Shown here: positions 6,280-63,049 of the stretch, in pieces | Position numbering within the stretch: position 1 is the stretch's first letter | How the letters are laid out: every line of letters begins with the position of its first letter | Program-made: the position numbers and the translations under genes | NCBI RefSeq assembly: GCF_000002425.4 | Contig: NC_037269.1 | Coordinates: forward strand, 1,003,543 to 1,067,542 | Direction of reading: 5' to 3' | DNA length: 64,000 bases | Origin: Physcomitrium patens | Lineage: Eukaryota; Streptophyta; Bryopsida; Funariales; Funariaceae | Notes under the pieces: generated by a model | What the model saw: only the letters and a program-made list of their open reading frames with translations | Databases searched by the model: none | Told to the model about the DNA's origin: nothing

Positions 6280-6284
6280 GGTAC
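6280..6284. repeat. Target-site duplication, left (GGTAC), element B1
   Basis: GGTAC directly precedes the 5' LTR and is repeated exactly at 12395-12399 after the 3' LTR. A 5-bp duplication is normal for Ty3/Gypsy integrases and fixes both LTR boundaries. Confidence 0.88.
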
Positions 6285-6347
6285 TATTAGGGACATAATC
6301 CTTAGAACCTTCTAGAGACAAGTTTCTAGAACCTTCTAAAAGCAAGT

Positions 6348-6370
6348 TTCTAGAACCTTCTAGAAGCTTC
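6348..6370 (+). promoter_or_regulatory. Heat-shock element array in 5' LTR of B1
   Basis: Five alternating 3-bp modules (TTC, GAA, TTC, GAA, TTC), each separated by exactly two bases, fill this stretch. This fits the heat-shock factor consensus of inverted nGAAn units; three units suffice for a functional site in known systems. Further GAA/TTC clusters run from 6305 to about 6470, and one GAA-TTC pair (6494-6501) sits just upstream of the TATA box. Binding is predicted, not shown. Confidence 0.8.
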
Positions 6371-6493
6371 TTAGTTGATAGAAGATATTAGGAACATAGT
6401 CTTTAGAACCTTCTAGAGATAAGTTTCCAGAACCTTCTAGAAGCAAGTCTTTAGAACCTTCTAGAAGCTTCCAAGTTAATAGAAGTTGCTTGA

Positions 6494-6555
6494 GAAGCTT
6501 CCTAAATAGGAGTATATATTGGAATCGAGGTTGAAGAGTTCTTCAGTCTCGACAA
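6494..6555 (+). promoter_or_regulatory. LTR core promoter: TATA box, start-site hairpin and self-priming sequence
   Basis: TATATATT at 6513-6520 is followed about 32 bases later by AGTCTCGACAA (6545-6555), which would be the first 11 bases of the RNA. A small hairpin, TGAAG-AGTT-CTTCA, occupies 6532-6545. The same layout is seen in C1 (TATA about 62814-62821, start motif 62779-62789, minus strand). The start site is inferred from TATA spacing. Confidence 0.65.
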
Positions 6556-6684
6556 CACATCTCTTGGAGCTCTAGCCCACCTCTCTAATGTTGTTCTTGT
6601 ATTCATCTGATTAAACTAGTTCTTGCCAGTTCTTCTTGAACTTCTTGTTAGATCTCGAGTGTGTATTTTAGTGTCCATGACATT

Positions 6685-6695
6685 TTGTTGAGACT
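6685..6695 (+). promoter_or_regulatory. Primer-binding site complementary to the element's own RNA 5' end
   Basis: TTGTTGAGACT begins two bases after the 5' LTR and is the reverse complement of AGTCTCGACAA at 6545-6555 except for one C-to-T change, which still allows a G-U pair. In C1 the equivalent site (62639-62649) has the unmutated form. This is the geometry of self-primed Tf1/sushi elements. A weaker initiator-tRNA-Met-like match lies at 6707-6718. Confidence 0.65.
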
Positions 6696-6734
6696 TCACT
6701 CACCTCAGATATCAGAGTTAGTTTCTTCCTCGTT

Positions 6735-6925
6735 AGAATGCGGATAACCCCTCTACTTGGAAGTGTACTAGCATTTTAGAGGTTGCGGATTACCCTCTTC
6801 TAAATTGATACTTCTTTTGTTACAATATTGGAATTTTATTCTTCTTGGAGAGAGTACATTATCCCTTTTCTTGAAGCTCTTAAGGCATTTTAGAGGTTGC
6901 GGAGTACTCTCCTCTAAACCAATAT
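6735..6925 (+). repeat. Repeated modules in the leader between primer site and gag
   Basis: A block starting GCATTTTAGAGGTTGCGGA occurs at about 6771 and again at about 6885 (period 114 bp), with weaker versions of its GCGGATWACCCCTCT core at about 6739 and 6852. C1 has the same arrangement on the minus strand (about 62435-62610). The role is unknown; RNA packaging or translation control are possibilities. Confidence 0.6.
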
Positions 6926-6962
6926 TGTCTTCTTGTAGAGTCATTTTTGTCCTTCTCTTAGA

Positions 6963-7987
6963 ATGGCCGGAGGCCAAGACATTAGTATGACGGAAAGTTC
7001 GGAGTCTAAGTTGGATGCTATCATGAATGCCCTTGCTACATTATCACAAAGAACTGCAGAGATTGAAGGAATCATGGCAAGGCTTCATAATAATGGAGCA
7101 TCTGGGATGGCACAATCTAGATTGCACTAGCCTCAAACTTTTGCACTTGGAGAAGCAACTTTGCCTCAGGTTCGACAAGCACCACTGGTTCTACAACATA
7201 AGGAGCTTCGAGTTAGCCTTCCGAACAAGTTCGATGGTATGCGTTCCAAGTTTCGAAGATTCGTCAATCAAATCAGGTTGATAACAGTTTTACAGCCCAA
7301 ACGCTATCCAACGGAGGAGTCACGCGTTGGGCTTGTTGGAACCTTGCTTATAGGGCAAGCTCTATCATGGTTTGCTCTTTTGTTTGAGAAACGATCGTCC
7401 ATACTAAACAACTTTGAAACCTTTTAGGAGGCGTTTGCAGAAGCATTTGGTGAATACGACAAGGTTCGATGGGCTACAACAAAGATCCGGTCACTACGAC
7501 AAGAGATGCGCTCTACATCAGTCTATGCATCGGACTTCAGGCAATTAGCATGCGATATTAATTGAGACAAAAAAGCGTTGATGAGTCAATTCTATTGGGG
7601 TTTAAGGGATGATGTGAAGGATTTGCTGTTAACTCTTCCTGATCCGTAAATGCTCAATGAAGCTATTAGCCAAGCTGTGAAGTGTAATAATCACTTATTC
7701 CAATGCCGCCAAGACCAACGTTCAAGATAACATACGTTTGTCATACCGCACTTATGTCAACAAGCAGCGTGAATACACATTCAGAGGTAGAAGACATGCA
7801 AATTGATGTGGTACGTATCAAATTCCTAACCCAAGAAGAAAAAAAGCAACGTACAGAGGAAGATCTATGCTTGTATTACGGTGAAGAAGGCCACAAAGTT
7901 GGAAACTGCTCCAAGAAGCAAAATCAACATATTGTCAGGACTAGAGGCGCATTTATTCAGGAAAACGAGGATGCCCAATCACAATAG
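6963..7987 (+). pseudogene. Gag of B1 (several premature stops)
   Basis: The start is ATG at 6963, where C1 also has its gag start (62371, minus strand). After an N-terminal helical region comes the capsid-like part (LRVSLPNKFDGMRSKF, then GTLLIGQALSWFA), and a zinc knuckle lies at 7868-7909. The second knuckle Cys is Tyr, but Gly-His and the final Cys remain. In-frame stops occur near 7127, 7425, 7563 and 7647, where C1 has sense codons or is split. The product would form the particle and bind RNA in an intact copy. Confidence 0.85.
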
Positions 7988-8631: not shown

Positions 8632-9890
8632 CCATATGATTGCGCCATAGACTTGCAAGAAAGAGCACAACCGCCTTTTGGCCCAATCTACAATCTATCG
8701 CAGACGGAGTTGGCGGAGTTGCGGAAGTACATCGACGAGAATCTAGCCAAGAACTTCATCTGTCATTTAAAATCGTCAACTGGAGCACCCATCTTATTTG
8801 TGAAGAAGAAAGATGGCTCGTTGCGGATGTGCGTGGACTATCGAGGCCTCAACAAGGTAACAAAGAAGAATCGTTATCCATTACCCTTGATTTGTGGTCT
8901 CTTAGAACAACTTGGACGTAAAGGATCTTTACAAAAATTGATCTAAGGGGAGCTTACAACCTCGTACGAATCAAAGAAGGAGATGAGTGGAAGACAACAT
9001 TCCGTACAAGGTATGGCCATTTTGAATATAATGTCATGTCCTTTGGTCTTACCAATGCTCCAGCGGTCTTTCAAATGATGAATGACATTTTCCAAAAACA
9101 CCTTGACGATTTTGTTGTCATCTATTTGGATGATATTTTGATACTCTCTAAAAACGAGGAAGAGCATAAAAAGTACATTCGTTTGGTCTTGAAGAAACTT
9201 CGCAAGCGAGGACTACATGCCAAGTTAAAGAAGTGTATATTTCACTAAATGGAGATAGAGTTTTTGGGATTCGTTGTAACTATGGAAGGCTTGAAGATGG
9301 ACCCCAAGAAGGTGGAAGCAATCGTCTCCTAGGAGGTTCCAAAGACGGTTAGAGACGTACAATGCTTTCTTAGTTTTGCCAACTTCTATCGGATCTTCAT
9401 CAAGAATTACTCTCAAGTTGCTGCTTCTCTCACTCGATTGACATGCAAGGATAAGCTGGAATAGGGACGTCTAGCGAAGAAGGCGTTTCAAGACCTGAAG
9501 ACCGCATTTACTATGGCTCCAATCTTAGTACATCCAGACTTTACAAAGGCCTTTTATTTAGAAACTGATGCTTCGGATTTTGCTTTGAGAGCTGTACTTT
9601 CACAAATGGCAGAAGACAAGAAGCTCCATCCAGTTGTATTCTATTTTCGAAAGTTCTCTGCTGCTGAAATCAATTATGAGATCCACAATAAGGAACTTCT
9701 TGTTATAGTGGATTCTTTCCAAGAATGGCGTTACTTTCTTGAAGGAACTGCATACCTAGTGACCATATACACAGATCACAAGAATTTGGAGTATTTCATG
9801 CCGGCTCATGTTTTAAATCGACGTCAAGCTCGGTGGAGTATGTTGCTATCTAGGTTCGATTTTGTTATCACTTATCGACCTGAAAAGTAG
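8632..9890 (+). pseudogene. Reverse transcriptase and RNase H of B1
   Basis: RT fingers and palm motifs run from about 8660 ([29 protein letters not shown]). The active-site YLDD is intact at 9123-9134. RNase H follows from about 9540, with catalytic positions in ETDASD, the EIHNKELL region and YTDHKNLEYF. The frame is broken near 8940 (RT), 9246, 9331 and 9463. C1 shows the corresponding region as one 484-codon frame. Confidence 0.9.
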
Positions 9891-10149: not shown

Positions 10150-11430
10150 TATATATCCCAAAAGGACCATAACGACTCTGAGTTCTTCAATCTCACCATG
10201 ATTTTCCAACTGCGGGACATTTTGGATTCAACAAGACCTTGAAGCTTATTTCTTGAGATTTTTGGTGGCCCCAAATGTAGAAAGATGTGAAAGATTTTGT
10301 CCTCTCCTGCGACATCTGTTCAAGATCCAAGAATCCTCGACATCTCCCTTATGGACTCCTACAGCCATTGTCGATTCCACGTCGACCATGGTCTTCTATT
10401 TCCATGGACTTCATCAGGGACCTGCCATCATCAAATTCATTTGACAGCATCTTTTTCGTGGTAGATCGGCTTACAAAGATGGCGCACTTTGTCCCTTGCA
10501 AGAAGACATCATCCAGTGAAGTCACAACAAGGCTCTTTCTCGATAATGTATATCGATATCATAGACTACCAGATGATATCGTATCAGATCGAGGAACCAA
10601 GTTCGTATCAAAGTTTTGGAGATCTCTCTTTGAGATATTGAAGGTGGATATCAAGCTTTCTTCGGCTTTTCATCCTCAAACTGACGGCCAAATGGAACGG
10701 GTGAACCAAGTCTTGGAACAATACTTACGATGCAGCATCAACTATCAGCAAGACGATTGGACCACATGTCTGTCGCTAGCCGAGTTTGCATATAACAACA
10801 CCCTCCATGCATCGACTCAGTACACACCATTCTTTTCCAACTATGGATATCATCCGAAGCTTGATTTATTATGTCCGTCACCAAATAACAATCCAACAGC
10901 TGAAGGATTTGCGAAGCAACTATCAAAGCTTCAAAATACGTTGAAGTTCTAAAAACACTTTGCTCACGAATCCTACAAGGCGTCTGCTGATAGATTTCGA
11001 AATCAAACACCTACTTTTGAAATTGGACATAAAGCATGGCTTCTTCGACAGAATATCAAGACCAAGCGACCATGTGATAAATTGGACTATCGAAGATTGA
11101 GACCATTTATCATCTAGAAGCAAATCAATCCAGTGGCGTACCGTCTAGAATTACCGGCTTCTATGAAGGTACATCCAGTCTTTCATATTTCTCTGTTGGA
11201 GCCTTATTGAGAGTTGTCTTTTCTTGAAGAGTGCAATGTCTGCCACCTAGTATTGAAATCGAGAACCACGAGGAATACAAGGTTGAAAAGATGCTGGATT
11301 CACGGCGAAGGTGGGACAAGTTGGAGTATCTTGTTCATTAGTGCGGCTATGACATTAATGAGCGAACGTGGGAGCCAGTTAAAAATCTTGCCAATGGGCC
11401 GCAAAAGGTATAGGAGTTTCATCAACAACA
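10150..11430 (+). pseudogene. Integrase and C-terminal chromodomain of B1
   Basis: An HHCC zinc domain (about 10183-10340) precedes the core, whose three catalytic acidic residues are kept: Asp in SMDF (about 10408), Asp in VSDR (about 10578) and Glu in MERVN (about 10691). A chromodomain at about 11250-11420 reads VEKMLDSRRRWDKLEYLVH, a stop, then CGYDINERTWEP. Stops near 10257, 10280, 10950, 11115 and 11340 inactivate the chain. Confidence 0.9.
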
Positions 11431-11978: not shown

Positions 11979-11996
11979 AGCTAAAGGAAGGGATGA
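11979..11996 (+). promoter_or_regulatory. Polypurine tract of B1
   Basis: AAGCTAAAGGAAGGGATGA directly precedes the 3' LTR. C1 has the matching purine run on the minus strand at about 56018-56035. Such tracts prime plus-strand DNA synthesis. Confidence 0.75.
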
Positions 11997-12394
11997 TGTT
12001 AGGGACATAATCCTTAGAACCTTCTAGAGATAAGTTTCTAGAACCTTCTAGAAGCAAGTCTCTAGAACCTTCTAAAAGCTTCTTAGTTGATAGAAGATAT
12101 TAGGGACATAGTCCTTAGAACCTTCTAGAGATAAGTTTCTAGAACCTTCTAGAAGTAAGTCTCTGGAACCTTCTAGAAGCTTCTTAGTTGGTAGAACTTG
12201 CTTGAGAAGCTTCTTAAATAAGAGTATATATTGGAATCAAGGCTAAAGAGTTCTTCAGTCTGGACAACACATCTCTTAGAGCTCTAGCTCACCTCTCTAG
12301 TGTTGTTCTTGTATTCATCTGATTAATCTAGTTCTTGCTAGTTGTTCTTGAACTTCTTGTTAGATCTCGAGTCTATATTTCTGTGTCCGTGATA
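11997..12394 (+). repeat. 3' LTR of B1
   Basis: 398 bp, TGTTAGGGAC to CCGTGATA, the same length as the 5' LTR. It ends exactly at the second GGTAC target duplication. Its terminal TG is intact where the 5' LTR has TA. Confidence 0.95.
12036..12183 (+). promoter_or_regulatory. Heat-shock element arrays in 3' LTR of B1
   Basis: Three four-module arrays of alternating TTC/GAA with two-base spacing lie at 12036-12053, 12137-12154 and 12166-12183. They match the arrays in the 5' LTR and in both C1 LTRs. Confidence 0.8.
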
Positions 12395-12399
12395 GGTAC
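12395..12399. repeat. Target-site duplication, right (GGTAC), element B1
   Basis: Exact repeat of 6280-6284. Confidence 0.88.
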
Positions 12400-13800: not shown

Positions 13801-15523
13801 AATGAGAAAGAGAGGAATAATCAGGCGGGGATTGAAATTCCATGGGGGGGGGGATTAGGGTTGAACGGAGGTCATAGTAACGTTGAACTGAAAAAAGGGC
13901 GGGCTAGCGAGGTCAAAGGCGGGGTGAGGGAGGGGAGGGAGGGGAGGGAGGGGTCAGATCCGATCGTCTCTCTCATTCTCCTTCCTTGGGGGCTTAGGTC
14001 GATGAATGGGATCGCACATCGCGCAGAGAAAGAGGAAGAGAGTGGGATCGTGCGAGAGCCAGAGACTGACTGTTTGTTTGTATGTACGTATGTATGTAAG
14101 TAAGTTGCAGAGGAGATGGGGTGGTGGGATGGCATTCTTCCACCATGTCCTCCTCTGACAAGTTTCTGACGCATTCCTAGTGCGCGCCCCTGTATTGTCG
14201 GAGATAGAAGGAGCGTGGCAGCTGGCTTACTGACACTCTCACCGGCTTTCTGCCACTCCCCTCTTCAATCCCTCGTCACACACCCACCCCCCCCCCCCCC
14301 CATCACCCCCTGCCATAGCCTTTGCGCTCGCTCACTTCTTGTCTCGGCCACCCCTGCCTTGCAGCGGGACCGCTGATCTACTTTTTGTGGGCGCTTATCG
14401 TTTTGCTCCTGTCTGCTAGCGCTCTTCCCAACGAGTCTCTGAGGGGACGAGGCCCGCGACACAGAGCCTGTCGTTGAAGCGTGTGATTGGTTTCAAGGTG
14501 GTGGCATCGAGGATGTGCTGGTTGTCACGCCTCAACTTCTAGCGTTTGTGAGCCGCACCGTAGATGTCTTGCCTCAGTGTGGGCCGTGTTTGCACTTGTT
14601 GTTAAGCAGGATAGGCTCAGGGTTGACCTAAGGTTTGAGTTCATCCTGGTTGTCGCTTATTGTGGTGGAAGGTTGATTTCTCAATCGCAGCCTGTTTTCA
14701 CGGGGAGGACTGTGTACGTTGCACCTAGTGCCTGGGACGATGAAGGAGGATTGAAGGTTCTTTGAGATGTGCTCCTGTTTGAATGTGTTTTCGCGTTCCT
14801 TCTGGATCCTTTTAGGGCACAGGGCAGGTTTGGTTTGTGGTGCCTCATGGTGTTGCGGCAAGCGTTTTTCACCGCCGATATTTGGTTGATGCAGACGCGC
14901 ATGTGGCACCTTCTCAGCTTTTGTCTCTCACTATCTGTGATCCAGTGAATAGTGGCATTGCTTCCTAGCGCTAAGAATGGCACATCTTTGAAGTCGTTGG
15001 ATATCAGCACCTCAGATACGAATCTCGGTTTAACGGTAAAGTACGTACATTCAAGCTAATGTGGAACCCGAGCGGTGCTCTCGAGCGAATGTAGACTGTC
15101 TTCCTGGGTGGACTGTCGGTTTTCACGACATTGTTGCAGATGAGATTCAGATGCGATGCAGATATCAGCTGCAGAGGCTGAGATTTCTCGTTTGAGCACA
15201 TCCAGGGCGCCAGACAAAGTATGCGAATGCGGAAGCACCATCTCTTAACATCTGTGCTTCAATTTGAAAGGTTTTCCTAGTTTGCAGGACTGGAATTGTT
15301 TTGCAGACCTCAATGGCCGGCATTCGCGGCCTAGTGAAAGAAAATACTTCTCGTCAACAGATGCTGTCCACCAGTCACCTCCAATCAAGATCGATCTCTT
15401 CATCTCGCATGCGAGAGACGTTCTCTGGCCACCAAGTCTGAGGTGGATCCCAGTGAGATTTTGAAGCACTCAACGGATTGCACCCTTTAGTGAATATTCA
15501 AGTGCTGCGAGCAGATTGTCATA
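13801..15523 (+). promoter_or_regulatory. GC-richer upstream region of the DUF868 gene
   Basis: Base composition changes sharply from AT-rich to mixed at about 13800, as expected for a gene promoter and 5' leader. It contains a telobox-type TTAGGGTT (13855-13862), repeated GGGAGGG runs (13920-13951, able to form a quadruplex), and a poly-C run near 14287-14302. A 5'-UTR intron is possible but not proven. No conserved protein is encoded here. Confidence 0.5.
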
Positions 15524-16420
15524 ATGCACGACGCACTCCCCTCTTGCTTTGGGGAGTATGGAGTACAAGTGGTGGATACTTCTGCAGGGAGCAATAAAGT
15601 GACGCAAAACCTCGTCACATGCCTATACCAAACGAAGCTAGCTGGTAAATGCCGGCCACTTTCGATTACTTGGTGCAAGAATTTAATAGGTCAAGGCCTC
15701 AGTGTAAATGTGGATGTGGACCAGCACATGTGTAAGGTCGACATGAAGCCTTGGATGTTCTGGAAGAAGCAGGGTCTGAAAAGTTTCGAAGTGGATGGTA
15801 TCAAAGTAGAAGTGTTTTGGGATCTCTCCTCAGCCAAGTACATTTGTGGTCCAGTCCCCAGTGATAGTTTCTTCGTGGCGGTCGTATCGGACGGAGAAGT
15901 AGTGCTGTTGCTTGGCGACATGTACAGCGAAGCATATAAGAAGACCAAGGCTAGACCCGCCTCAATTGAGGCGATCCTGGTATCAAGAAGCGAGCACGTC
16001 TTTGGTAAAAAGTATCACTCCACTAAGGCGCAATTTGAGGAGGGCGGAAAGGCACATGACATTGTAATCGAGTGTCAGATCAGCCCCTCTAGTGAGCCTC
16101 GTATGTATATCAGAGTGGACCGTGAGATTGTTGTGCAAGTGAAGCGGTTGGCATGGAAGTTTCGAGGAAATCAAACCATCATCGTGGATGGCAACCCTGT
16201 GGAGGTTTTCTGGGACGTGCACAACTGGTTATTTAATCCACGAGTTGGCCACGCTGTGTTCATGTTCCAGACTTGCTTGTCATCAGACAAACCATGGCTA
16301 AAGGAGGTCGCAGCTTGTTCATCGGTACTTCAATGGCCGGGTACGTACAGCTTCAAAGATAAGGAGACATCGGGTCCAAGTGGGTTCTCATTGGTTTTGT
16401 ATGCTTGGAAGAACGACTAG
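15524..16420 (+). CDS. DUF868 family protein
   Basis: Intronless 298-residue protein of the plant DUF868 family (PF05910), whose biochemical role is unknown. Recognisable family features are an N-terminal stretch VTCLYQTKLAG followed by an immunoglobulin-like run of beta strands, the repeated pattern of a basic Trp-containing strand followed by GIKVEVFWDLS (residues about 90-100) and GNPVEVFWDVHNW (about 222-234), the segment FFVAVVSDGEVVLLLGD near residue 130, and the C-terminal GFSLVLYAWKN. The length is typical of the family. The start is the first ATG after an in-frame TGA at 15491. No signal peptide or membrane segment is evident. The upstream GC-richer region probably holds the promoter and leader. 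No downstream partner gene is visible. Confidence 0.93.
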   Translation: MHDALPSCFGEYGVQVVDTSAGSNKVTQNLVTCLYQTKLAGKCRPLSITWCKNLIGQGLSVNVDVDQHMCKVDMKPWMFWKKQGLKSFEVDGIKVEVFWDLSSAKYICGPVPSDSFFVAVVSDGEVVLLLGDMYSEAYKKTKARPASIEAILVSRSEHVFGKKYHSTKAQFEEGGKAHDIVIECQISPSSEPRMYIRVDREIVVQVKRLAWKFRGNQTIIVDGNPVEVFWDVHNWLFNPRVGHAVFMFQTCLSSDKPWLKEVAACSSVLQWPGTYSFKDKETSGPSGFSLVLYAWKND

Positions 16421-47151: not shown

Positions 47152-50100
47152 CTACTCATTATTTGGTAATCGAAAGGTCTTCTTCAAATATTTTGAAGCT
47201 GTATCATCGCCTCGATAACACAGTATTCGCAATAATGTATCTGGGTCAGAAGCGCTCCAAGTGCCCGTAATAGAAGGTAGAGATGGTTTGGTTCCGCCTT
47301 TCCCAATTCCATAAACGGAGTTGAATCTCTGAATAACCTCAGAAGTTGGAAGTGAAAACAGAGAGACTACTTCAGTGGCAAAGGCTGCTTCCCTCTCCAC
47401 CTGCGTTGCAGGTAGTCCATCTCCATCTGCTATGAAAAGATCCTTCATACTCTTGAGATCCTCCTGCAACATACTTGCATCACTTACAGTAAAAGATCTC
47501 ATTGGACCAGCTGCCATCAAAACTAGCATAAGCCCTTCGAAACAGGCTCGCATCAGGGAACCTATTACTCGATTGCTCAATTGCTCTACGGAACTGTCCG
47601 AAATAATTCCCAATTGAGTATCCAACTCTTCGATTACGGCACTGATTCTTGAACTTGCTACCCCTCCCACATAAAGCCTGTCCCACAGAACAGGTCTCAA
47701 ATCAACAAAAACCACCCTATATGCTGCTATCTCCATGAGCTTGTCGATTCCCTCCTTCAACAAACTCCTGGTTTCGTATAAATTGCTGTCGACTGCTTCT
47801 GTATTTGGTTGCATAGAAGGCACATGACCGGACAGAGCAGAATCCTTTCGCCATCCAGTTCGTATCTTCTTCTCAATAAAATCAACTTCAACCAGGAGAT
47901 GATGTAGAGTATTCATTCGCAGGCAAATGTGTGGAAGGTCGTAAACTGCGGCTGAGGAAGGCTCCTTCTTTAAAGTGCCCTTAGGCTTGGGACTACCTCT
48001 ATCACTTCTGCCTTTTCCAAACCAAGACTTTTTGGTCTTGCACCGTGTAAGAGGTGGGATTGGAGGAATCAGAGCGTCTTTTTCACCTGAGATGACCAAA
48101 ACCATGAGGACGGGTTTAACAAAGTGTGCATAAGTCGCCGTACATATCGAAAATGAAAATGTTGGTTCAAAAGTTCTGCTGCACCGAACACAAGAAAAGG
48201 AACTGCGAAACATCTAACTTACAGTAAACGATCACAAAACCATGACTGATTAGATGAAAATATGAGTGGTGGTCAAAGGGCTTACCACAACTACCAATCG
48301 CCTGGGTAGCATAAATTTTTAATGCATTGTCTATGCCATTTACCAAGTCCTGAAGTAATTCTGGGAACTGTGACACAGGGAGTGCAAAATAAGTGTTGAG
48401 CATCTCGTCCACAATACGAAGAAGCTCCACCGCCGATGAAGCGTAACGCTCTTTCAAGGAATTGGGCTCCCAGCTCTGACACAAGTCAAAAGAACGGCGC
48501 TTAGGAAAAGAGCTATGTAATACAAGCGATCAACATGCAACCCGAACTGTTTTAGAATCAAAGAAAGAAGCTCTCAAGAAGGTGTACATGACGTAGGGAT
48601 CGGATGAACAGTCACAACAAGTGAAGGACAAATTGACAAGGAGATTGACAGCAAAGAGGAATACCTCCTTACTGACGTTAAGAGTAACCATTTCCTTCAG
48701 CATTTGCAACTTTTCTTCAACCCACTTCTTGGCTAAGTTTCCCACTGCTCGATCAGCTTCAAAAGGCGGCATTTCCCTGATTAACGCCTTACCTCCGTCT
48801 TCTGCATACACTCCATCTTCCACGACAACTTGAACTAACGACTTCTCCAACTGATCAGCAGCTTCCAAGACTTGCACAGTGTCTGCAGTTAATGCAGACA
48901 CCCCTGACATATACTGCTTTATTTCCCTACTATAACAAGCATGCAGAGTTACTGCAGCAACACCCCCTGCGTATGGATGCCATTCTTTCAGCGAAGGGCT
49001 AAAGTTCTCTATTTCTTTAGACACAAGTGCAGATGTATCTTTCGCAAGCTGCGCCAGAGCTGGTATAGGCGCATCAGCAGCCTTCCTTCTTGTATCCACA
49101 CTCTCCATCATCTGTACACTGTGTCATTAGTGCAAAGATGGTATTCCCGCGACACACGGTAACTTATAGTTGTGAAAACCTCTGTGCACACCTTTCTATG
49201 TTAAAATGCTAGAAAAGGATGGGGCGAGACATCTACTTGCGTACCTGCGCAAATGCTGTCCGAATGGACGATCGAACATACAAGTCCACGGTGCTAATCG
49301 CAATACTAATCTTCACCTTGCGTCTTTTGTCTTGATGCATGTCCTCACCTATAACCTCAGCAGATTGAACAGCCAAAGCCAAAACCTTCTCCAAGGGACC
49401 TCTTGCGCCCTCAGGAAACGAATCATGATACGACAACAGCCTCCTCTCTGTCCAAGTCTGGATAGCTGTCAGTATCGAGTGCAAGAGGTTCCACTGCTCA
49501 GGGCGTGCGGATTTATAATCTTTCACGACTTCTGCCATCTGGCTCTCAGCAGCTCCCAGAAGATCGAGCTCTTTTTGCCCAGTGTTTACGTACTGACGGA
49601 AGAGAACCCACATGAATAGCATGTTGTGAGTAAGTTGATCAATTCCCAGAACTACCCACGTTTTCTTGAACATTTCCAACATGTCATCGAGTTCCTCGAG
49701 TACTGTGCCTTCTTCAACGTGGTCAAAAACACATCCCAGCAGAGCCACGTAGAGGTTAATGTTAAACGGATACCCATCCGCCCAATGTAGAACGTCTTCG
49801 TTACTCTCTCCATTGAGTGGCCTTCCTGCGCGTGCCATCGCTGCGTTTCGTAAGGCTTGAATGCTCTCTGTGTTCTTACCAGTATCTGAGGCCCTGCAGT
49901 ACATCTCCTTTAAGCACTGTCGAAGCCGAAGAGCTTCCACTCCTTGAGAGTCACCTCGAACAAGTGGGTGGGCCAGAAGCCCTGCTTCCAATATCCGAAG
50001 TTGTCTTTTTAACCAGCGCACGTGCTCCGAGGAGTCCGTGAACGCTGAAGCTGGAATATTTTGCAAGAGCTCAAGAGGAACCAGCATGTGTTCGGTGCGC

Positions 50101-50715
50101 CTGCTGGCCTGGCCAGCTGCAGCACGAGAAAGAGCCCGGCGTGTTCTCAAGTCGACGGTATCGGCAATTAACATTTGGTCTCGCATGAGCTCAGCTGTTG
50201 TACGAGGTTTTCCTCCTCTCCTAGATACACCGGTGTTCAACTTGAGACCAAGAGCTTTTTTCATACGGCTGGCAGCCACTGCTGTTATGCCCTTATCAGG
50301 CTTAGAACGTGCTGATCCCACGCTTCTTGCACTTAAAGCCGCGGTCCCGGTTGCAGCCAGCATGATTTCATATGCTGATTCTCGAAAATCATCCTCTGCA
50401 CATTTGAAAATCAACATGATGAATAACAGAGTGCCTACAGATACGCTCTTTCCAGTTAGAAAAATATTAAATTTAAAATAATAATAATAATAATAATAAT
50501 AATGATAATAAAATCTGTTCACTATGTCACAACTTCATTGTAAAGAATCGAAGGATCAATCGAAAATTGACGACAGGTAAATAAATGGCTCCCACATATC
50601 CTTTACGAGTACCTGTTAAATCGACCTTTACCCTTGGTATGGGATTTCCCAGCTCACTATTTCTCATCGTCGTTGAACTTGTTCTTGGGCCCTCAGATTG
50701 TGCTGCTGGTGCCAT
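47152..50715 (-). CDS. DUF810 (Munc13/PATROL1-like) protein
   Basis: Five coding exons: 50715-50613, 50395-49245, 49111-48665, 48475-48286, 48086-47152. All junctions have GT/AG ends and consistent phase, giving 941 residues. The family (PF05664) carries Munc13-homology (MUN-like) domains; Arabidopsis PATROL1 moves a plasma-membrane proton pump by regulated exocytosis. Family landmarks are LTEDDFRESAYEIMLAATG (about 34-52), VPLELLQNIP, RWLKRQLRILEAGLL, CHWADGY-like LHWADGYPFNINLY, MLFMWVLFRQYVNTGQ, SSAVELLRIVDEMLNTYFAL (about 580-600), LRMNTLHHLLVEVDFIE, and the C-terminal DPDTLLRILCYRGDDTASKYLKKTFRLP. The start is the ATG at 50715; an upstream exon cannot be excluded, since other members have longer N-termini. 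Which DUF810 subgroup it belongs to cannot be settled by eye. Confidence 0.93.
50480..50503. repeat. AAT trinucleotide microsatellite in first coding intron
   Basis: About eight AAT/ATT units within the 50396-50612 intron of the DUF810 gene. Confidence 0.85.
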
Positions 50716-53001: not shown

Positions 53002-55614
53002 TTCTTTTTATTGTATAGCATGTGTCATCAATAGTGTTATATATTTACTATAGTTTGGATAAAATATTAGAATCTACTTTGGAGATATGCATCAAGGTAG
53101 GGTTACATATAATTGGTCATGTCTAAATATTAAATTTTGATAAGTTATATCTACAATTTTGCAATGATATTCATTGAGGTTTATTGATGATCATTGAAAA
53201 CATAACTTGCAATGATAATTTTTATTATTAGAAATTTAAGAGAGTTTTAATAATTATGGACTGAAAGTAATAAGAAATAATTTAATTTCTTGTGGGATTT
53301 TTAATCTTGTTTATAAAAATAAATTTAAAATGTAATGAATTACAAAATTTGCTTTGACTTTATTTCATGGTTTACAAGGTAGATTGGTTTAAATTAAATT
53401 GAAATTATAGCAAACAATGCTTTTGATTTCTTTTTTATTTTTAATTTTAGATGCTTCTTTAATACATTTCATTCATACTTTGTATATAGTTAGGAATAAT
53501 TACTGTCAGACATATAAAAATCTTTTGATCAACCTTATGAGCTGGATACTCAATAAAAATGATGAATACTACAGTGTTTGATGTGTTTGCAGAAATACCA
53601 GAATTTTTAGTTTAGTCCATTGGAATCAAAATCTAGGAAGTTTTATATGTGTTTGTTTTTGTTTTTGTTTTACACAATGTCAAATTACATTATTTGATCT
53701 GAATAAGCAGATTTCAAATAAATAAATAGATCATTTCATTCTTCCTTGAAACAATAAAAATAGATGACAGCTGCATGTTTTAATAAGTTCAATAAATATA
53801 AATATTGGTCCTTATGGACAATCTCGATGTAATTTTTTCATTTATTTATTCTGAGAATTTAAAAATCATCATGTCTTTGGTTTGATTACAAATAAAAGAT
53901 AATTATTTTGTACAATACCATAAAATAATGTTCTTATATACATGTATACATATACATATATACTTATAAATCTTAGATTTAATTTGCTAATGTAGACATT
54001 TTAATTTAAAAAAAGTAGGAGTAATTTTTTTGTATAAAATAAGTGATTATGTAATTTTCTTGTTTTTTCTTTTGTACAATACTTCTTGATGAAGTTTTTG
54101 GATATTTATAAATAATAATTTATAAATTTGATTATTTCATCATATAAATAATTAATTTAAAAATTAAATATGGTGACATTAAGATTATGACCATAGGAAT
54201 AATTATTTTTTTTACATAAATATAGAATTAGAAATAAAATGAATACTTTTATGTTATAAAAATAATATAAATAGTTTGTAAATGATAAAAAAATTTGGTA
54301 TCTTTAATTTCTTATCTTTAAAAGATTAATAAGAGTACACTTATAATATCAAAGGTTTGTCTTTTTTATTTAAGAAGAGATTTTTTCTTATTTTTAATAA
54401 GCCATAAGTATATTAGAAGTTGTGGATTATCCATTCATAAAGTAATATTTTTATTAAATTTTTTATACTCTTGATCCTATTTTGATACTTGTTCCAAGAA
54501 AAATTTGATTTATTTTTTTATTTTTTAATATTTTCGTTTGTTATTATTAAAAATATTATTAAAATGAAAGATGTGATAGCAAAAATTTAGGAAAAAATAA
54601 TAAAGTTATTGGTTATAATGCATCAATTCAATCTACTACTATAAGAAATAACAAAATTTATTAGAAATAAAGATGTGAAGATAGTTGGAGCTATAAATGA
54701 AAAGTTAGATTTTAAATAATTAAGTTTTGAAATAAATAAAATGAGAAGTATTAACCAATGGTGTCCTATTCTATGATATTTGCTTGAAAATGCATTGAGT
54801 ACTTAGTTGTAGAAGATAAAATAGAAATTACATCAATAAGGTCTTAAAAATTCAAATAAAAACCTAAAAAAATCTAATTAAATCTTAACAACGTTAATCA
54901 AAACTTTAATCAAATCTAAAAGAAGTTTTAAAGAAATTACAAATATATATATATATATATATATATTAAAGAAATAATAAAATAGAAATTCTAAAAAATA
55001 TTTTAAAAATATTAAAATTAGAAATTCTAATCAGATCTTAATGTAATCTTAAACAAGTTCTAATAAAATCTTAAACCAATTCCAACCAAATCCTACTAAA
55101 ATTCTAATCAAATCTTTAAAAAAATCTAATCCAATCTTAATCAAATTCTAAACAAATCCTAATTAAATCTTAAATCTTAAATAAATTCTTAATTAATCTT
55201 ATAATAAATTGATACCTCAATAATTAATAATCTAACCACTGGTTTTAATACAAAATTTGCAAACCTCTCAATCACTTAATTAGCAACAAGTAAAATCAAT
55301 TCTAAAAAGATTGAACTTATCAAATAGAAGGCAAAACCTAAAATCTACTTGGATGTTGGCTAATCTCTTTCTCCAACCTTAGTACCAATCTTCTAATGAT
55401 AATATTTCTAAATTTTATCATTATATTGATTTAAAATTAAACAAAGTTGTTGGAATTTAAGTCAATTATTACTATAAATATTTTTAATTTAATCTAAGCA
55501 ATATATTATTGTATATCTTAGAAATCCTCATTTATCTTCTAAACTCCAATTCTTGAGACCTCATTATCTTCGAATTCCAACAATCTTCAAACAAATCATT
55601 TAATCAAGTTCAAA
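53002..55614. other. AT-rich intergenic DNA with degenerate AAATCTAATC-type repeats
   Basis: No gene. From about 54835 to 55200 the sequence is built of short imperfect variants of TAATCAAATCTTAAA, interrupted by a TA run at 54943-54966. Confidence 0.65.
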
Positions 55615-55619: not shown

Positions 55620-56017
55620 TGTTACGGACACAGAAATACAAACTCGAGATCTAACAAGAAGTTCAAGAAGAACTAGCTAGAACTAGATTAATCAAATGAA
55701 TACAAGAATAATACCAGAGAGATGAGCTAGAGCTCCAAGAGATGTGTTGTCGAGATTGAAGAACTCTTCAGCCTCGATTCCAATATATACTCCTATTTAG
55801 GAAGCTTCTCAAGTAACTTCTACTAACTAGGAAGCTTCTAGAAGGTTCCAGAGACTTGCTTCTAGAAGGTTCTAAAAACTTATCTCTAGAAGGTTCTAAG
55901 GACTATGTTCCTAACATCTTCTATCAACTAAGAAGCTTCTAGAAGGTTCTAGAGACTTGTTTCTAGAAGGTTCTAGAAACTTGTCTCTAGAAGGTTCTAA
56001 GGACTATGTCCCTAACA
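55620..56017 (-). repeat. 3' LTR of C1
   Basis: 398 bp. In element orientation it begins TGTTAGGGAC and ends CCGTAACA. Alternating GAA/TTC heat-shock arrays of four modules lie at 55831-55848, 55932-55949 and 55961-55978. Confidence 0.95.
55831..55978 (-). promoter_or_regulatory. Heat-shock element arrays in 3' LTR of C1
   Basis: Three arrays of four alternating GAA/TTC modules with two-base spacing (55831-55848, 55932-55949, 55961-55978), at the same LTR positions as in B1. Confidence 0.8.
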
Positions 56018-56589: not shown

Positions 56590-57960
56590 TGATGAAACTT
56601 CTGTACCTTTTGCGACGCATTGGCGAGATTTTCAGCTGGCTTCTACGTTCGCTCATTAATATCGTAGCCGCACCAATGAACAAGATATTATAACTTGCTC
56701 CACCTTCGTCGTGAATCCAACACCTTTTCAACCTCGTATTCTTCATGGTTCTCGATCTCAATACTAGGTGGCGGACATTGCACTCTTCTAAGAAAAGACG
56801 ACTCTCGATAAGACTCCAACAGAGAAACATGAAAGACTGGATGTACCTTCATAGAAGCCGGTAATTCCAGATGATATGCCACTCGATTGATTTGCTTCTG
56901 GATGATAAATGGTCCCAATCTTCGATAGTCCAACTTATCACATGGTCGCTTGGTCTTGATATTCTGTCGAAGAAGCCATGCTTTATCTCCAATTTTGAAA
57001 GTAGGTGTTTGATTCCGAAATCTATCTGTAGATGCCTTGTAGGATTCTTGAGTGGATTGTAATTGAAGCTTCAACGTATTTTGAAGCTCTGATAGGTATT
57101 TCACAAATCCTTCAACTGTTGGATTGTTATTTGTTGACGGATTTAATAAATCAAGCTTCAGATGATACCCATAGTTGGAAAAGAATGATGTGTATTGAGT
57201 CGACGTAGGGAGGGTGTTGTTGTATGCAAACTCGATTAGCGGCAAATATGTGGTCCAATCGTCTTGCTGATAGTTGATGCTGCATCGTAAGTATTGTTCC
57301 AAGACTTGGTTCACCTGTTCCATTTGGCCGTCAGTTTGAGGATGAAAAGCCGAAGAAAGCTTGATATCCAGCTTTAGTATCTCAAAGACAGATCTCCAAA
57401 ACTTTGATACGAACTCAGTTTCTCGATCTGATACGATTTCATCTGGTAGTCCATGATATTGATACACATTATCGAGAAAGAGTCTTGTTGTGACTTCACT
57501 GGACGATGTCTTCTTGCAAGGGACAAAGTGCGCTATCTTTGTAAGCCGATCTACCACGACAAAGATGCTGTCAAATGAGTTCGATGATGGCAGGTCCTTG
57601 ATGAAGTCCATGGAAATTGGAGACCATGGTCGACATGGAATCGAAAATGGCTGTAGGAGTCCATAAGGGTGATGCCGAGGATTCTTGGATCTTGAACAGA
57701 TGTTGCAGGAGAGGACAAAATCTTTCACATCCTTCCACATTTGGGGCCACCAAAAATCTCGAGAAATAAGCTCCAAGGTCTTGTTGAATCCAAAATGTCT
57801 CGCAGTTGGAAAATCATGGCGAGATTGAAGAACTCGGAGTCGTGCTGGTCTTTTTGGGATATATAACCACTCCTAAAAGTATAAAAGATCTCCCTTCACC
57901 TTGAACTTGTCATGATTGGCACATTGCTTAATATCAATGCCTACTGAAACTTCAATAGTC
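56590..57960 (-). pseudogene. Integrase and chromodomain of C1
   Basis: The integrase frame 57776-56688 keeps the second half of the HHCC zinc domain (CNICSRSK) and all three catalytic acidic residues (SMDF, VSDR, MEQVN). It continues through the GPFIIQKQINRVAYHLELP region into the chromodomain (EEYEVEKVLDSRRRW). The chromodomain carries two stops, one just after RRRWSKL and one replacing a Trp codon near 56650. The first part of the zinc domain lies upstream of 57776, beyond further stops. Confidence 0.9.
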
Positions 57961-58177: not shown

Positions 58178-59632
58178 TCACCGAGCTTGACGTCGATTTA
58201 AAACATGAGCCGGCATGAAATACTCCAAATTCTTGTGATCTGTATATATGGTCACTAGGTATGCAGCTCCTTCAAGAAAGTGACGCCATTCTTGGAAAGA
58301 ATCCACTATAACAAGAAGTTCCTTATCGTGGATCTCATAATTGATTTCAGCAGCAGAGAACTTTCGAGAATAGAATGCAACCGGATGGAGCTTCTTGTCT
58401 GCTCTCATTTGTGAAAGTACAACTTCCAAAGCAAAATCCAAACCATCAGTTTCTAAGTAAAAGACCTTTGTAAAGTCTAGATGTACTAAGATTGGAGCCA
58501 AAGTAAATGCGGTCTTCAGGTCTTGAAACGCCTTCTCAGCTAGAGGTCCCCATTCCAACTTATCCTTGCATGTCAATCGAGTGAGAGGAGCAGCAACTTG
58601 AGAGTAATTCTTGATGAAGATCCGATAGAAGTTGACAAAACTAAGAAAGCAATGTATGTCTCTAACCGTCTTCAAAACCTCCCAAGATACGATTGCTTCC
58701 ACCTTCTTGGGGTCCATCTTCAAGCCTTCCGTAGTCGCAACGAATCCCATAAACTCCATCTCTATTTGGTGAAATAAACACTTCTCCAACTTGGCATATA
58801 GTCCTCGCTCGCGTAGTTTCTCCAAGACCAAACGAACGTGCTTTTCATGCTCTTCCTCGTTTTTAGAGAATATCAAAATATCATCCAAATAGATGACAAC
58901 AAAATCGTCAAGGTGTTTTTGGAAAATGTCATTCATCATATGTTGAAAGACCGCTGGAGCATTGGTAAGACCAAAGGGCATGATATTATGCTCAAAGTGG
59001 CCATACCTTGTACGGAACGATGTCTTCCACTCATCTCCTTCTTTGATTCGTACGAGGTTATAAGCTCCCCTTAGATCAATTTTTGTAAAGATCCTTGCAC
59101 ATCCAAGTTGTTCTAAGAGACCAGAAATCGAGCGTAATGGATAACGATTTTTCTTTGTTACCTTGTTGAGGCCTCGATAGTCCACGCACATCCGCAACGA
59201 GCTATCTTTCTTCTTCACAAATAAGATGGATGCTCCAGTTGACGATTTTGAATGACAGATGAAGTTCTTGGCTAGATTCTCGTTGATATATTTCCGTAAC
59301 TCCGCCAACTCCATCTGCAATAGATTGTAGATTGGGCCAAAAGGCGGTTGTGCTCCTTCTTGCAAGTCTATGGCACAATCATATGGTTGATGTTCCGGTA
59401 GTATGTCAGCATTCTTCTTTTGAAATACGTCTTTAAAATCTTTATATTGCTCAGGTATACTTGTTGTCGAGATCTTCTCCCCGGTAGTTGGAGTTGCATA
59501 AATGACAAACGGTATGCCTTCCTTGGATGATCTTATAAACGCTCTTGCTCCAATGAATAAGGATTTCTCTATTCGGGGTTTTCTACTAGGCTTGCTCTTG
59601 GGTGGTTTTGTGGGAAAGGTCATCTTCCTCAA
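58178..59632 (-). pseudogene. Reverse transcriptase and RNase H of C1 (open 484-codon frame)
   Basis: One uninterrupted frame holds the pre-RT linker, RT and most of RNase H. The RT active-site YLDD is at 58891-58880 with IFSKN following; other motifs are [18 protein letters not shown] and [19 protein letters not shown]. RNase H shows ETDGLD (Ala-Ser of the usual ETDASD changed), EIHDKELL and YTDHKNLEYF. The frame starts within pol, so it is part of a polyprotein rather than a separate gene. Confidence 0.9.
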
Positions 59633-60523
59633 CCTCCAATCTATGGATGGGTTATGCTTTTCTAATTAGGAAAGACCAAGAATAACAGGATTTGATGGGG
59701 TTCTAATAATATTGAAAATAATATGACTACTATGGCCCTTAAACATCACTTCTATAGGTTATTATTCATGGGTGACACTACCAGACAATAAAGGTCGCCC
59801 ATCTATGTCCTCAACATGAACAGGTCTAGATTTTTGTACTAAAGGGATCTTATGACACTTTGCAAATTCTTCGTTTAAGAAACAAGTAGATGCTCTTGAA
59901 TCTAATAATGCTAAGGTTCTCAGTTTCTGAAGGCCAATAAGTAAAGGGATTGTAAAGCAAAGGGCAGGTTGAGCGGAAAGAAAGGAACCTGGTTGTTGTT
60001 GCGATATTTTACTATCCAGCCGCAGGGTTCTTATTGTGGCTGGGCATCCTCATTTTCCTAAACAAACGTGCCTCTAGTCCTGACAATATGTTGATTTTGC
60101 TTCTTGGGGCAGTTTTCAACTTTTTGGCCTTCTTCACCGCAATACAAGCATAGACCTTCCTCTATACGTTGCTTTTTTTCTTCTTGGGTAAGGGATTTGA
60201 CACGTACCACATCAATTTGCATGTCTTCTACCTCTGAAAGTGAATTCACGCTGCTTGCTGACATAGTTGGGGCGTAGCGAACCGTATGTTGTCTTCAACG
60301 TTGGTCTTGGCAGCGTTGGAATAGGTAGTTATCGCACTTTACAGCTTGGCTAATAGCTTCGTTGAGTGTTTGTGGATCAGGAAGAGTTAACAGCAAATCC
60401 TTCACATCATTCCTTAAACCCCAGTAGAATTGACTCATCAACGCTTCTTCATCCCAATTGATGGGGCATGCTAATTGTCTGAAGTCCGATGCATAGACTA
60501 ATGTAGAGCGCATCCCTTATCGT
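59633..60523 (-). pseudogene. Gag C-terminus (zinc knuckle) and protease of C1
   Basis: The knuckle at 60150-60109 keeps both first Cys (CLYC) and the last Cys but has Gln in place of His, the reverse of the defect in B1. The protease site near 59902-59894 reads Asp-Ser-Arg instead of Asp-Ser-Gly. Frame changes separate this region from RT. Confidence 0.82.
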
Positions 60524-62371: not shown

Positions 62372-62638
62372 TCTAAGAGAAAGACAGAAATGACTCTACA
62401 AGAAGACAATATTGGTTTAGAGGAGGGTACTCCGCAACCTCTAAAATGCCTTAAGAGCTTTAAGAAAAGGAGTAATCTACTCTCTCCAAGAAGAATAAGA
62501 CTCCAATATTATAACAAAAGAAATATCAATTTAGAGGAGGGTAATCCGCAACCTCTAAAATGCTAGTACACTTCCAAGCAGAGGGGTAATCCGCACTTTA
62601 ACGAGGAAGAAACTAACTCTGATATCTGAGGTGAGTGA

Positions 62639-62649
62639 AGTCTCGACAA
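62639..62649 (-). promoter_or_regulatory. Self-complementary primer-binding site of C1
   Basis: On the minus strand this reads TTGTCGAGACT, two bases inside the 5' LTR. It is a perfect complement of the AGTCTCGACAA start motif of the B1 LTR and a 10-of-11 match to the C1 LTR's own AATCTCGACAA (62779-62789). Confidence 0.65.
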
Positions 62650-62651
62650 AC

Positions 62652-63049
62652 TATCACGGACACAGAAATACAAACTCGAGATCTAACAAGAAGTTCAAGA
62701 AGAACTGGCAAGACCTAGATTAATTAGATGAATACAAGAACAACACCAGAGAGGTGAGCTAGAGCTCCAAGAGATGTGTTGTCGAGATTGAAGAACTCTT
62801 CAGCCTCGATTCCAATATATACTCCTATTTAGGAAGCTTCTCAAGTAACTTCTATCAACTAGGAAGCTTCTAGAAGGTTCCAGAGACTTGCTTCTAGAAG
62901 GTTCTAGAAACTTATCTCTAGAAGGTTCTAAAGACTATGTTCTTAACATCTTCTACCAACTAAGAAGCTTCTAGAAGGTTCCAGAGACTTGCTTCTAAAA
63001 GGTTCTAGAAACTTGTCTCTAGAAGGTTCTAAGGACTATGTTTCTAACT
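62652..63049 (-). repeat. 5' LTR of C1
   Basis: 398 bp. In element orientation it begins AGTTAGAAAC (mutated from TGTTAGGGAC) and ends CCGTGATA. Four-module heat-shock arrays lie at 62863-62880 and 62964-62981; a TATA box is at about 62814-62821. Confidence 0.93.
62863..62981 (-). promoter_or_regulatory. Heat-shock element arrays in 5' LTR of C1
   Basis: Arrays of four alternating GAA/TTC modules at 62863-62880 and 62964-62981, upstream of the TATA box in element orientation. Confidence 0.8.

What the first reader, a model, noticed from the sequence alone, without database searches (positions are those of the whole stretch)
6545..6695. Self-priming signature (Tf1/sushi type) in a plant chromovirus
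AGTCTCGACAA at 6545-6555, placed about 32 bases after the TATA box and so at the predicted RNA 5' end, is complementary to the 11 bases lying two bases inside the 5' LTR (6685-6695). C1 carries the perfect complement at 62639-62649. Tf1 primes reverse transcription by folding the first 11 bases of its RNA onto such a site. Plant chromoviruses are generally described as tRNA-primed, so this would be unusual.
Basis: partly seen in the sequence, partly recalled or inferred. Interest (0 to 1): 0.88.

Follow-up and report, generated by a model that had tools for sequence, protein, structure and literature searches.

The report
Self-priming moss retrotransposon, signature confirmed
Two old copies of a jumping element in a plant genome, probably a moss, carry the pairing that lets such an element start copying its own RNA without a borrowed tRNA; this mode was already predicted for their lineage, but related families here keep the pairing while changing its letters.

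Summary
AGTCTCGACAA (6545-6555), 32 nt after the TATA box, pairs over exactly 11 bases (one G-U) with 6685-6695, two bases inside the 5' LTR. Copy C1 has the perfect-complement PBS, but its own RNA start has one mismatch.

Pairing, not sequence, is conserved. In the same genome, copies picked without regard to complementarity show two primers that differ at three positions, each with its matching PBS: 96.7% of cells paired versus at most 44.9% when slid. Six of 17 contigs from other organisms show the same geometry and add three further primer/PBS sequences. No TGG of a tRNA-type PBS lies within 30 nt of either LTR.

The element does not look like a tRNA-primed plant chromovirus: Gag, integrase SH3 and RT point to the Tf1/sushi group. 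Neumann et al. 2019 already predicted self-priming for most plant members of that group, the Tcn1 clade. The mechanism is well supported by sequence, but this is a new member of a known kind. Nothing here shows priming itself.

Found on the way: a tandem, covarying three-way-junction RNA in the leader, and a heat-shock-element array in U3.

The parts
6280..6284 (+). Target-site duplication GGTAC, left copy of element A (right copy 12395-12399)
6285..6682 (+). 5' LTR of element A, 398 bp; 34 of 398 positions differ from its 3' LTR
6285..6512 (+). U3 with an array of heat-shock-element-like repeats (15 GAAnnTTC/TTCnnGAA dyads, 8 triplets)
   Evidence: 2000 mononucleotide shuffles, mean 0.15 dyads, maximum 2
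6513..6519 (+). TATA box (TATATAT), 32 nt before the primer
6545..6555 (+). Predicted RNA 5' end and self-primer AGTCTCGACAA
   Evidence: RNA start inferred from TATA spacing
6685..6695 (+). Primer binding site TTGTTGAGACT, two bases inside the LTR
6708..6811 (+). Leader RNA module 1, three-way junction
6824..6926 (+). Leader RNA module 2, three-way junction
7131..7427 (+). Gag piece (DUF4939)
8922..9248 (+). Reverse transcriptase piece (RVT_1) of broken element A
9465..9890 (+). RNase H piece of element A
10281..10952 (+). Integrase core piece of element A
11983..11996 (+). Polypurine tract before the 3' LTR (AAAGGAAGGGATGA)
   Evidence: assigned by position and composition
11997..12394 (+). 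3' LTR of element A
62652..63049 (-). 5' LTR of element C1, 398 bp; 22 of 398 positions differ from its 3' LTR; flanks ATAAA/ATAAG
62779..62789 (-). C1 primer position AATCTCGACAA (one mismatch to its own PBS)
62639..62649 (-). C1 primer binding site TTGTCGAGACT
62522..62626 (-). C1 leader RNA module 1
62408..62510 (-). C1 leader RNA module 2
58181..59665 (-). C1 open stretch with RT and RNase H
56688..57872 (-). C1 open stretch with integrase zinc-binding domain, core and Tf2-1-like SH3
55620..56017 (-). 3' LTR of element C1

Best explanation
Elements A and C1 are old, broken copies of a Tf1/sushi-type (plant Tcn1-like) chromovirus family, probably in the moss Physcomitrium patens. The family starts reverse transcription from its own RNA. 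The transcript begins at the A 32 nt after the TATA box; its first 11 nt fold back onto a PBS two bases inside the 5' LTR; the RNA is cut after nucleotide 11, in a conserved CAA|C context, and the freed 3' end is extended. Shown here by sequence: the geometry, the 11-bp pairing, its covariation between families, the lack of a tRNA-type PBS, and the likely lineage. Inferred: the RNA start. Inferred by analogy with Tf1: the cut and the extension.
For: Pairing at the exact place is not chance. Own-genome copies not chosen for complementarity: 36 distinct rows, 96.7% of cells paired against at most 44.9% slid, three pairs with double-sided changes in 12 cells. Of five regions chosen by a Gag search, five carry the signature, four of them with a different primer ACTCTTGTCAA and its matching PBS. 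Six of 17 outside loci meet a strict rule against 7 of 3400 shuffled loci, with compensated changes. In all 50 tabulated rows a TATA lies 31-34 nt before the primer. Primer positions 10 and 11, where extension would start, pair in 42 of 42 rows. Base 12 is C in 46 of 50 rows and T in 4. No TGG within 30 nt of either LTR end; best 3'-end match to 18 host tRNAs 6 of 12 for A and C1. The same scan fits 0 of 3 copia regions. Clade-level prediction by Neumann et al. 2019 (passages).
Against: No transcript start, primer or cDNA was measured. C1's own primer has a mismatch at position 2 shared by both its LTRs, which its PBS did not follow; 11 of 30 same-family copies have one mismatch. Free folding pairs 10 of the 11 primer bases with the PBS in A but not in C1, and neither leader is more stable than shuffles. 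The extra duplexes of the Tf1 'pretzel' were not found in the window family. Novikova et al. 2010 found neither a tRNA nor a self-priming site in the Selaginella element SM-Tcn1 (passage). The six outside rows were selected for the feature. Only 18 of 63 listed tRNA places were compared.
Confidence: 0.87

Rival explanations
1. The 11-bp complementarity is a structural stem (closing helix of the leader, dimerisation or packaging) and not the primer; reverse transcription is primed by something else.
For: The leader contains other conserved, covarying RNA structure, and pairing alone cannot tell a stem from a primer.
Against: The site sits where a PBS sits (two bases after the LTR), ends exactly at the predicted RNA 5' end, keeps 11 bp in nearly every family, and is tightest at the end that would be extended. 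No other PBS candidate starting with TGG lies within 30 nt.
Confidence: 0.08
2. A tRNA, or an internal part of one, primes at 6683-6700.
For: Half-tRNA priming is known in plant copia elements (Neumann et al. 2019, passage). Not all host tRNAs were compared here.
Against: No TGG near either LTR end. Against 18 tRNAs the best 3'-end match is 6 of 12 for A and C1, and the longest shared run is 5 nt for A and C1, 7 and 8 nt for L087 and L091. It would not explain why the PBS changes together with the RNA start.
Confidence: 0.04
3. The match is a coincidence of two related sequences.
For: An equally good match somewhere in the LTR arises in about 1 to 3% of shuffles for A and C1 taken alone.
Against: At the observed place 0 or 1 of 10,000; it recurs with changed letters in another family of the same genome and in 6 of 17 other loci.
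Confidence: 0.01

Closest known systems
Tcn1 clade of plant chromoviruses (mosses and club-mosses; REXdb of Neumann et al. 2019, PMC6317226)
   Same: Chromovirus related to Tf1/sushi elements, in a non-seed plant by inference, without a tRNA-type PBS; self-priming predicted there for most elements (passages).
   Different: No Tcn1 reference sequence was at hand, so identity with a named family is untested. Their text gives a prediction; here the pairing is shown to covary between families.
Tf1 of Schizosaccharomyces pombe and the Tf1/sushi group
   Same: First 11 nt of the RNA complementary to a PBS just inside the 5' LTR; Tf2-1-like SH3 in the integrase; chromodomain.
   Different: The two further duplexes of the Tf1 'pretzel' structure (PMC10085805, passage) were not found in the window family; the leader has three-way-junction modules of its own.
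SM-Tcn1 of Selaginella moellendorffii (Novikova et al. 2010, PMC2864245)
   Same: Tcn1-like chromovirus of a non-seed plant, LTRs of about 400 bp.
   Different: Reported with neither a tRNA nor a self-priming PBS (passage).
RLG1 and RLG2 of Physcomitrium patens (PMC7466625)
   Same: RLG1 is the most abundant element and has a chromodomain; RLG2 is heat-induced (passages). The abundant 347-aa-Gag family here could be RLG1, and the window's family with its heat-shock-element array could be RLG2.
   Different: No sequence comparison was possible; both identifications are guesses.
TAR-lineage copia elements (Houba, Osr-1)
   Same: Self-priming proposed in plants (PMC6317226, passages).
   Different: A different superfamily, Ty1/copia.

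Membership tests
Tf1/sushi group of chromoviruses | PBS complementary to the first bases of the element's own RNA | tested here: met
   the RNA start is inferred from TATA spacing
Tf1/sushi group of chromoviruses | Reverse transcriptase closer to vertebrate and fungal Tf1/sushi elements than to other plant chromoviruses | tested here: inconclusive
   Of the best 120 listed RT hits 16 carry an organism name: 13 vertebrate, 3 fungal, 0 plant; in the tree the plant-side clades sit beside the fungus Absidia. No tRNA-primed plant chromovirus was in the tree, and records of the own species may be left out.
Tf1/sushi group of chromoviruses | Three-duplex 'pretzel' structure of the 5' leader | tested here: inconclusive
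   Upstream arm in the same register in five of five outside loci L003, L004, L005, L007, L016 (shuffle p 0, 0.002, 0.008, 0.022, 0.416), but not in A, C1, L087, L001 or L093; downstream arm inconsistent
Chromovirus | Chromodomain at the integrase C-terminus | tested here: met
   Pfam Chromo, 62.4 bits, in a piece of another own-genome copy and 52.9 bits in L004; in A and C1 the region is broken by stops and was not matched
Plant Tcn1 clade | RT/INT grouping with Cryptococcus Tcn1 and the known moss and Selaginella elements | not testable with these tools
   no named Tcn1 reference among the sequences at hand
tRNA-primed plant chromoviruses (Tekay, Reina, CRM, Galadriel) | PBS complementary to a tRNA 3' end (TGG start) | tested here: not met
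   no TGG within 30 nt of either LTR end; best 3'-end match of A and C1 to 18 host tRNAs 6 of 12
Tf1/sushi group of chromoviruses | RNase H cut after nucleotide 11 and extension of that fragment | not testable with these tools
   needs RNA and cDNA

The most novel reading that the evidence does not exclude
These moss elements pair a self-primer with an undescribed leader RNA: a three-way junction, tandemly repeated in this family, that starts about 12 nt after the PBS. Each module has an outer stem and two hairpins with near-identical GGAUUACC-type loops. It may present the genomic RNA to Gag or hold the primer in place. The fold is supported by covariation (93.2% of cells paired against at most 58.1% slid, 20 of 36 pairs with double-sided changes); no Rfam family matched the window at gathering score; its role is unknown.
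Probability: 0.5. Interest if true: 0.6.

Novelty: new member of a known kind. Interest (0 to 1): 0.45.

Why it matters
Self-primed reverse transcription was demonstrated in fission yeast and, in the passages I saw, only predicted in plants. If the host is P. patens, two families there carry a clean signature in a model moss, so priming in a plant can be tested directly. The compensated primer/PBS pairs between families are strong sequence evidence that the pairing itself is what selection keeps. They also make it worth looking again at the Selaginella element that was reported without any PBS.

Tried and rejected
Chance match: rejected. tRNA 3'-end priming: rejected for the 18 tRNAs tested and by the missing TGG. 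A tRNA-primed plant chromovirus with an odd PBS: judged unlikely on lineage. Folding energy as proof led nowhere, since the leaders fold no better than shuffles. Two scans of viral contigs found no relatives.

Host identity: the DUF868 protein's best named hit was Selaginella moellendorffii at 66%, with unnamed hits at 93, 88 and 80%, which first suggested a lycophyte. Genome size, chromosome-size contigs C1-C27 and bunched copia Gag hits then pointed to P. patens. The plastid rbcL search did not resolve a species. P. patens stays an inference. For L002-L008 and L016 the 'Trichormus' MAG name suggested the fern Azolla; paper searches gave no proof, so their host is left open. On the leader RNA, print was searched only, and only the listing was seen; one search failed on a malformed term.

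Rows left out: three of 12 RT-upstream regions (L083, L084, L088) did not align and were not pursued; 14 of the 44 LTR matches were not given as loci; L008, L015 (stops), L016 and L017 (short) were not in the tree.

Full report
Observation. The LTR is 398 bp and ends at 6682, fixed by aligning four LTRs and by the GGTAC target-site duplication. The PBS at 6685-6695 therefore starts two bases inside. The helix is exactly 11 bp with one G-U; neither flank extends it. C1's PBS is the perfect complement of A's primer. However, both LTRs of C1 read AATCTCGACAA, so C1's own RNA would pair at 10 of 11. Shuffled LTRs gave an equal match at the same place in 0, 1 and 0 of 10,000 (A; C1; A's LTR with C1's PBS), and anywhere in the LTR in 109, 305 and 3 of 10,000.

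Copies in the same genome. A search of the own assembly with LTR+PBS listed 44 matches (a capped list), of which 30 were given as loci, A and C1 among them. In those 30 the primer is AGTCTCGACAA in 18 and the PBS TTGTCGAGACT in 20. Nineteen of 30 pair at all 11 positions counting G-U (11 purely Watson-Crick) and 11 have one mismatch. My first reading of these loci ignored strand and left 13 unread; one search corrects it. Of 12 regions upstream of other RT copies, three did not align and were not pursued; of the other nine, eight pair at 11 of 11 (one with a G-U) and one at 9 of 11.

Pairing conserved, letters changed. Five regions picked only by a Gag-family search all carry the signature. 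One has this family's primer. Four have ACTCTTGTCAA with PBS TTGACAAGAGT, three compensated differences away; three of these four belong to a group with a 347-aa Gag frame that dominates the 150 listed Gag places. On the 36 distinct own-genome rows, none chosen for complementarity, 96.7% of cells pair against at most 44.9% with the partner slid, and three pairs show double-sided changes in 12 cells. A single scan of bacterial genome contigs found 17 relatives, in contigs deposited as bacterial MAGs. Six of 17 meet a strict rule (exact 11/11, CA then 0-4 nt, TATA 20-42 nt upstream), each with a hit at CA+2, against 7 of 3400 shuffled loci. Their primers are AGTCTCGACAA (L001), AAGGTGAACAA (L003), AAGGCGAACAA (L005, L007, L016) and CTCTTGATCAA (L004, which pairs over 12). 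L003 and L005 differ by one fully compensated pair. Adding these six rows, which were selected for the feature, gives 97.2% paired against at most 45.7% slid, and 8 of 11 pairs with double-sided changes. Primer positions 10 and 11 pair in 42 of 42 rows and position 2 is the loosest (6 of 42 unpaired), as expected if the 3' end must be extended. Base 12 is C in 46 of 50 rows and T in four.

No tRNA site. There is no TGG within 30 nt of either LTR end. Against 18 of the 63 listed host tRNA places, the best 3'-end match is 6 of 12 for A and C1, 7 for L087 and 5 for L091. Not every tRNA type was covered. As a control for the scan, 0 of 3 copia 5' regions fit.

What the element is. Gag matches DUF4939 just above its cut-off, integrase has a Tf2-1-like SH3, and a piece of another copy has a chromodomain at 62.4 bits. 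Of the 120 listed RT hits 16 carry an organism name: 13 vertebrate, 3 fungal, no plant, though records of the own species may be left out. In the RT tree the window groups with L001, P0001, P0003, P0005, P0006 and P0007; their sister is a clade of L002-L007 with P0015 and P0024, and next comes the fungus Absidia with weak support. No tRNA-primed plant chromovirus could be included, so the placement is supportive, not final. Neumann et al. 2019 (PMC6317226, passages) state that most Tcn1-clade elements of mosses and club-mosses lack tRNA-type PBSs and were predicted to self-prime, and that no other plant chromovirus group does. Novikova et al. 2010 (PMC2864245, passages) found neither kind of site in the Selaginella element.

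Host. The assembly has 470 Mb in 101 contigs; C1 is 30.2 Mb, C27 5.3 Mb, and C101 (112.5 kb) holds rbcL. Many of the 150 listed copia Gag hits bunch at single places on several chromosomes, as described for RLC5 of P. patens (PMC7466625, passages). I infer P. patens; the DUF868 and rbcL searches did not settle it.

Mechanism. By analogy with Tf1 (recalled; also described in passages of PMC10085805 and PMC4600332), the first 11 nt anneal to the PBS, the RNA is cut after nucleotide 11, and the fragment is extended. The Tf1 'pretzel' has two more duplexes. One has a counterpart in the same register in the five outside loci L003, L004, L005, L007 and L016, with varied sequence (shuffle p 0, 0.002, 0.008, 0.022 and 0.416), but I did not find it in the window family; the other is inconsistent. 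Free folding pairs 10 of 11 primer bases with the PBS in A but not in C1, and neither leader is more stable than shuffles. C1 is a puzzle: its LTRs share a mismatch that its PBS did not follow. A mismatch at position 2 is far from the extended end and may be tolerated, or the PBS may be inherited from the old template.

Extra findings. From about 12 nt after the PBS the leader carries a module of about 104 nt that folds as a three-way junction. It is present twice in A and C1, three times in L093, and once in L001 and in the fetched pieces of the other family (L090-L092, L094). A model built from ten modules found 78 matches in 65 sources (ten of them cut off by a locus end): in the window, own-genome loci and L001, none in L002-L017. 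On 75 distinct rows 93.2% of cells pair against at most 58.1% slid, and 20 of 36 pairs show double-sided changes. That alignment was fitted to the structure; the earlier ten-row alignment gave 16 of 36 pairs with kept double changes. No Rfam family reached its gathering score in the window. U3 of A holds 15 heat-shock-type dyads and 8 triplets, against a shuffle mean of 0.15 and 0.0025; a copy of the other family (L091) has 2 and 0.

Verdict. The signature is real and is best read as Tf1-type self-priming, in a lineage where this was already predicted. New here are the covarying evidence, the second family in the same genome, and the leader RNA.

Noticed in passing
6708-6811, 6824-6926 (+); 62522-62626, 62408-62510 (-); L093, L090-L092, L094, L001: Three-way-junction RNA module of about 104 nt in the leader, tandem in this family, with covariation in all helices; no Rfam match in the window. 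A candidate new structured RNA.
   Followed up: partly
6285-6512 (+) and the U3 of L087: Dense array of heat-shock-element-like repeats in U3: 15 dyads and 8 triplets in A, 28 and 17 in the first 500 nt of L087, 2 and 0 in L091 of the other family. P. patens RLG2 is reported as heat-induced and RLG1 as heat-repressed (PMC7466625, passages).
   Followed up: partly
62779-62789 and 55747-55757 (-): Both C1 LTRs share A at primer position 2 while the PBS keeps the C that pairs with G; this bears on whether the PBS is copied from the primer or from the old template.
   Followed up: no
window 54345-54449 (+): Weak match to the leader module (26.7 bits, E 0.0006), very AT-rich; possibly a decayed relic or chance.
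   Followed up: no
L002-L008, L016: Eight relatives of this element in contigs of one 'Trichormus' MAG (ERR2144891), five of them with the self-priming signature. If the source is the fern Azolla, the group is not confined to mosses and club-mosses; host unproven.
   Followed up: partly
15494-16417 (+): DUF868 plant protein; best named hit Selaginella moellendorffii 66%, unnamed hits to 93%.
   Followed up: no
47155-50534 (-): PATROL1-like protein exons; 47155-48213 matches PATROL1-like TPR, the two other stretches tested gave no Pfam match.
   Followed up: no
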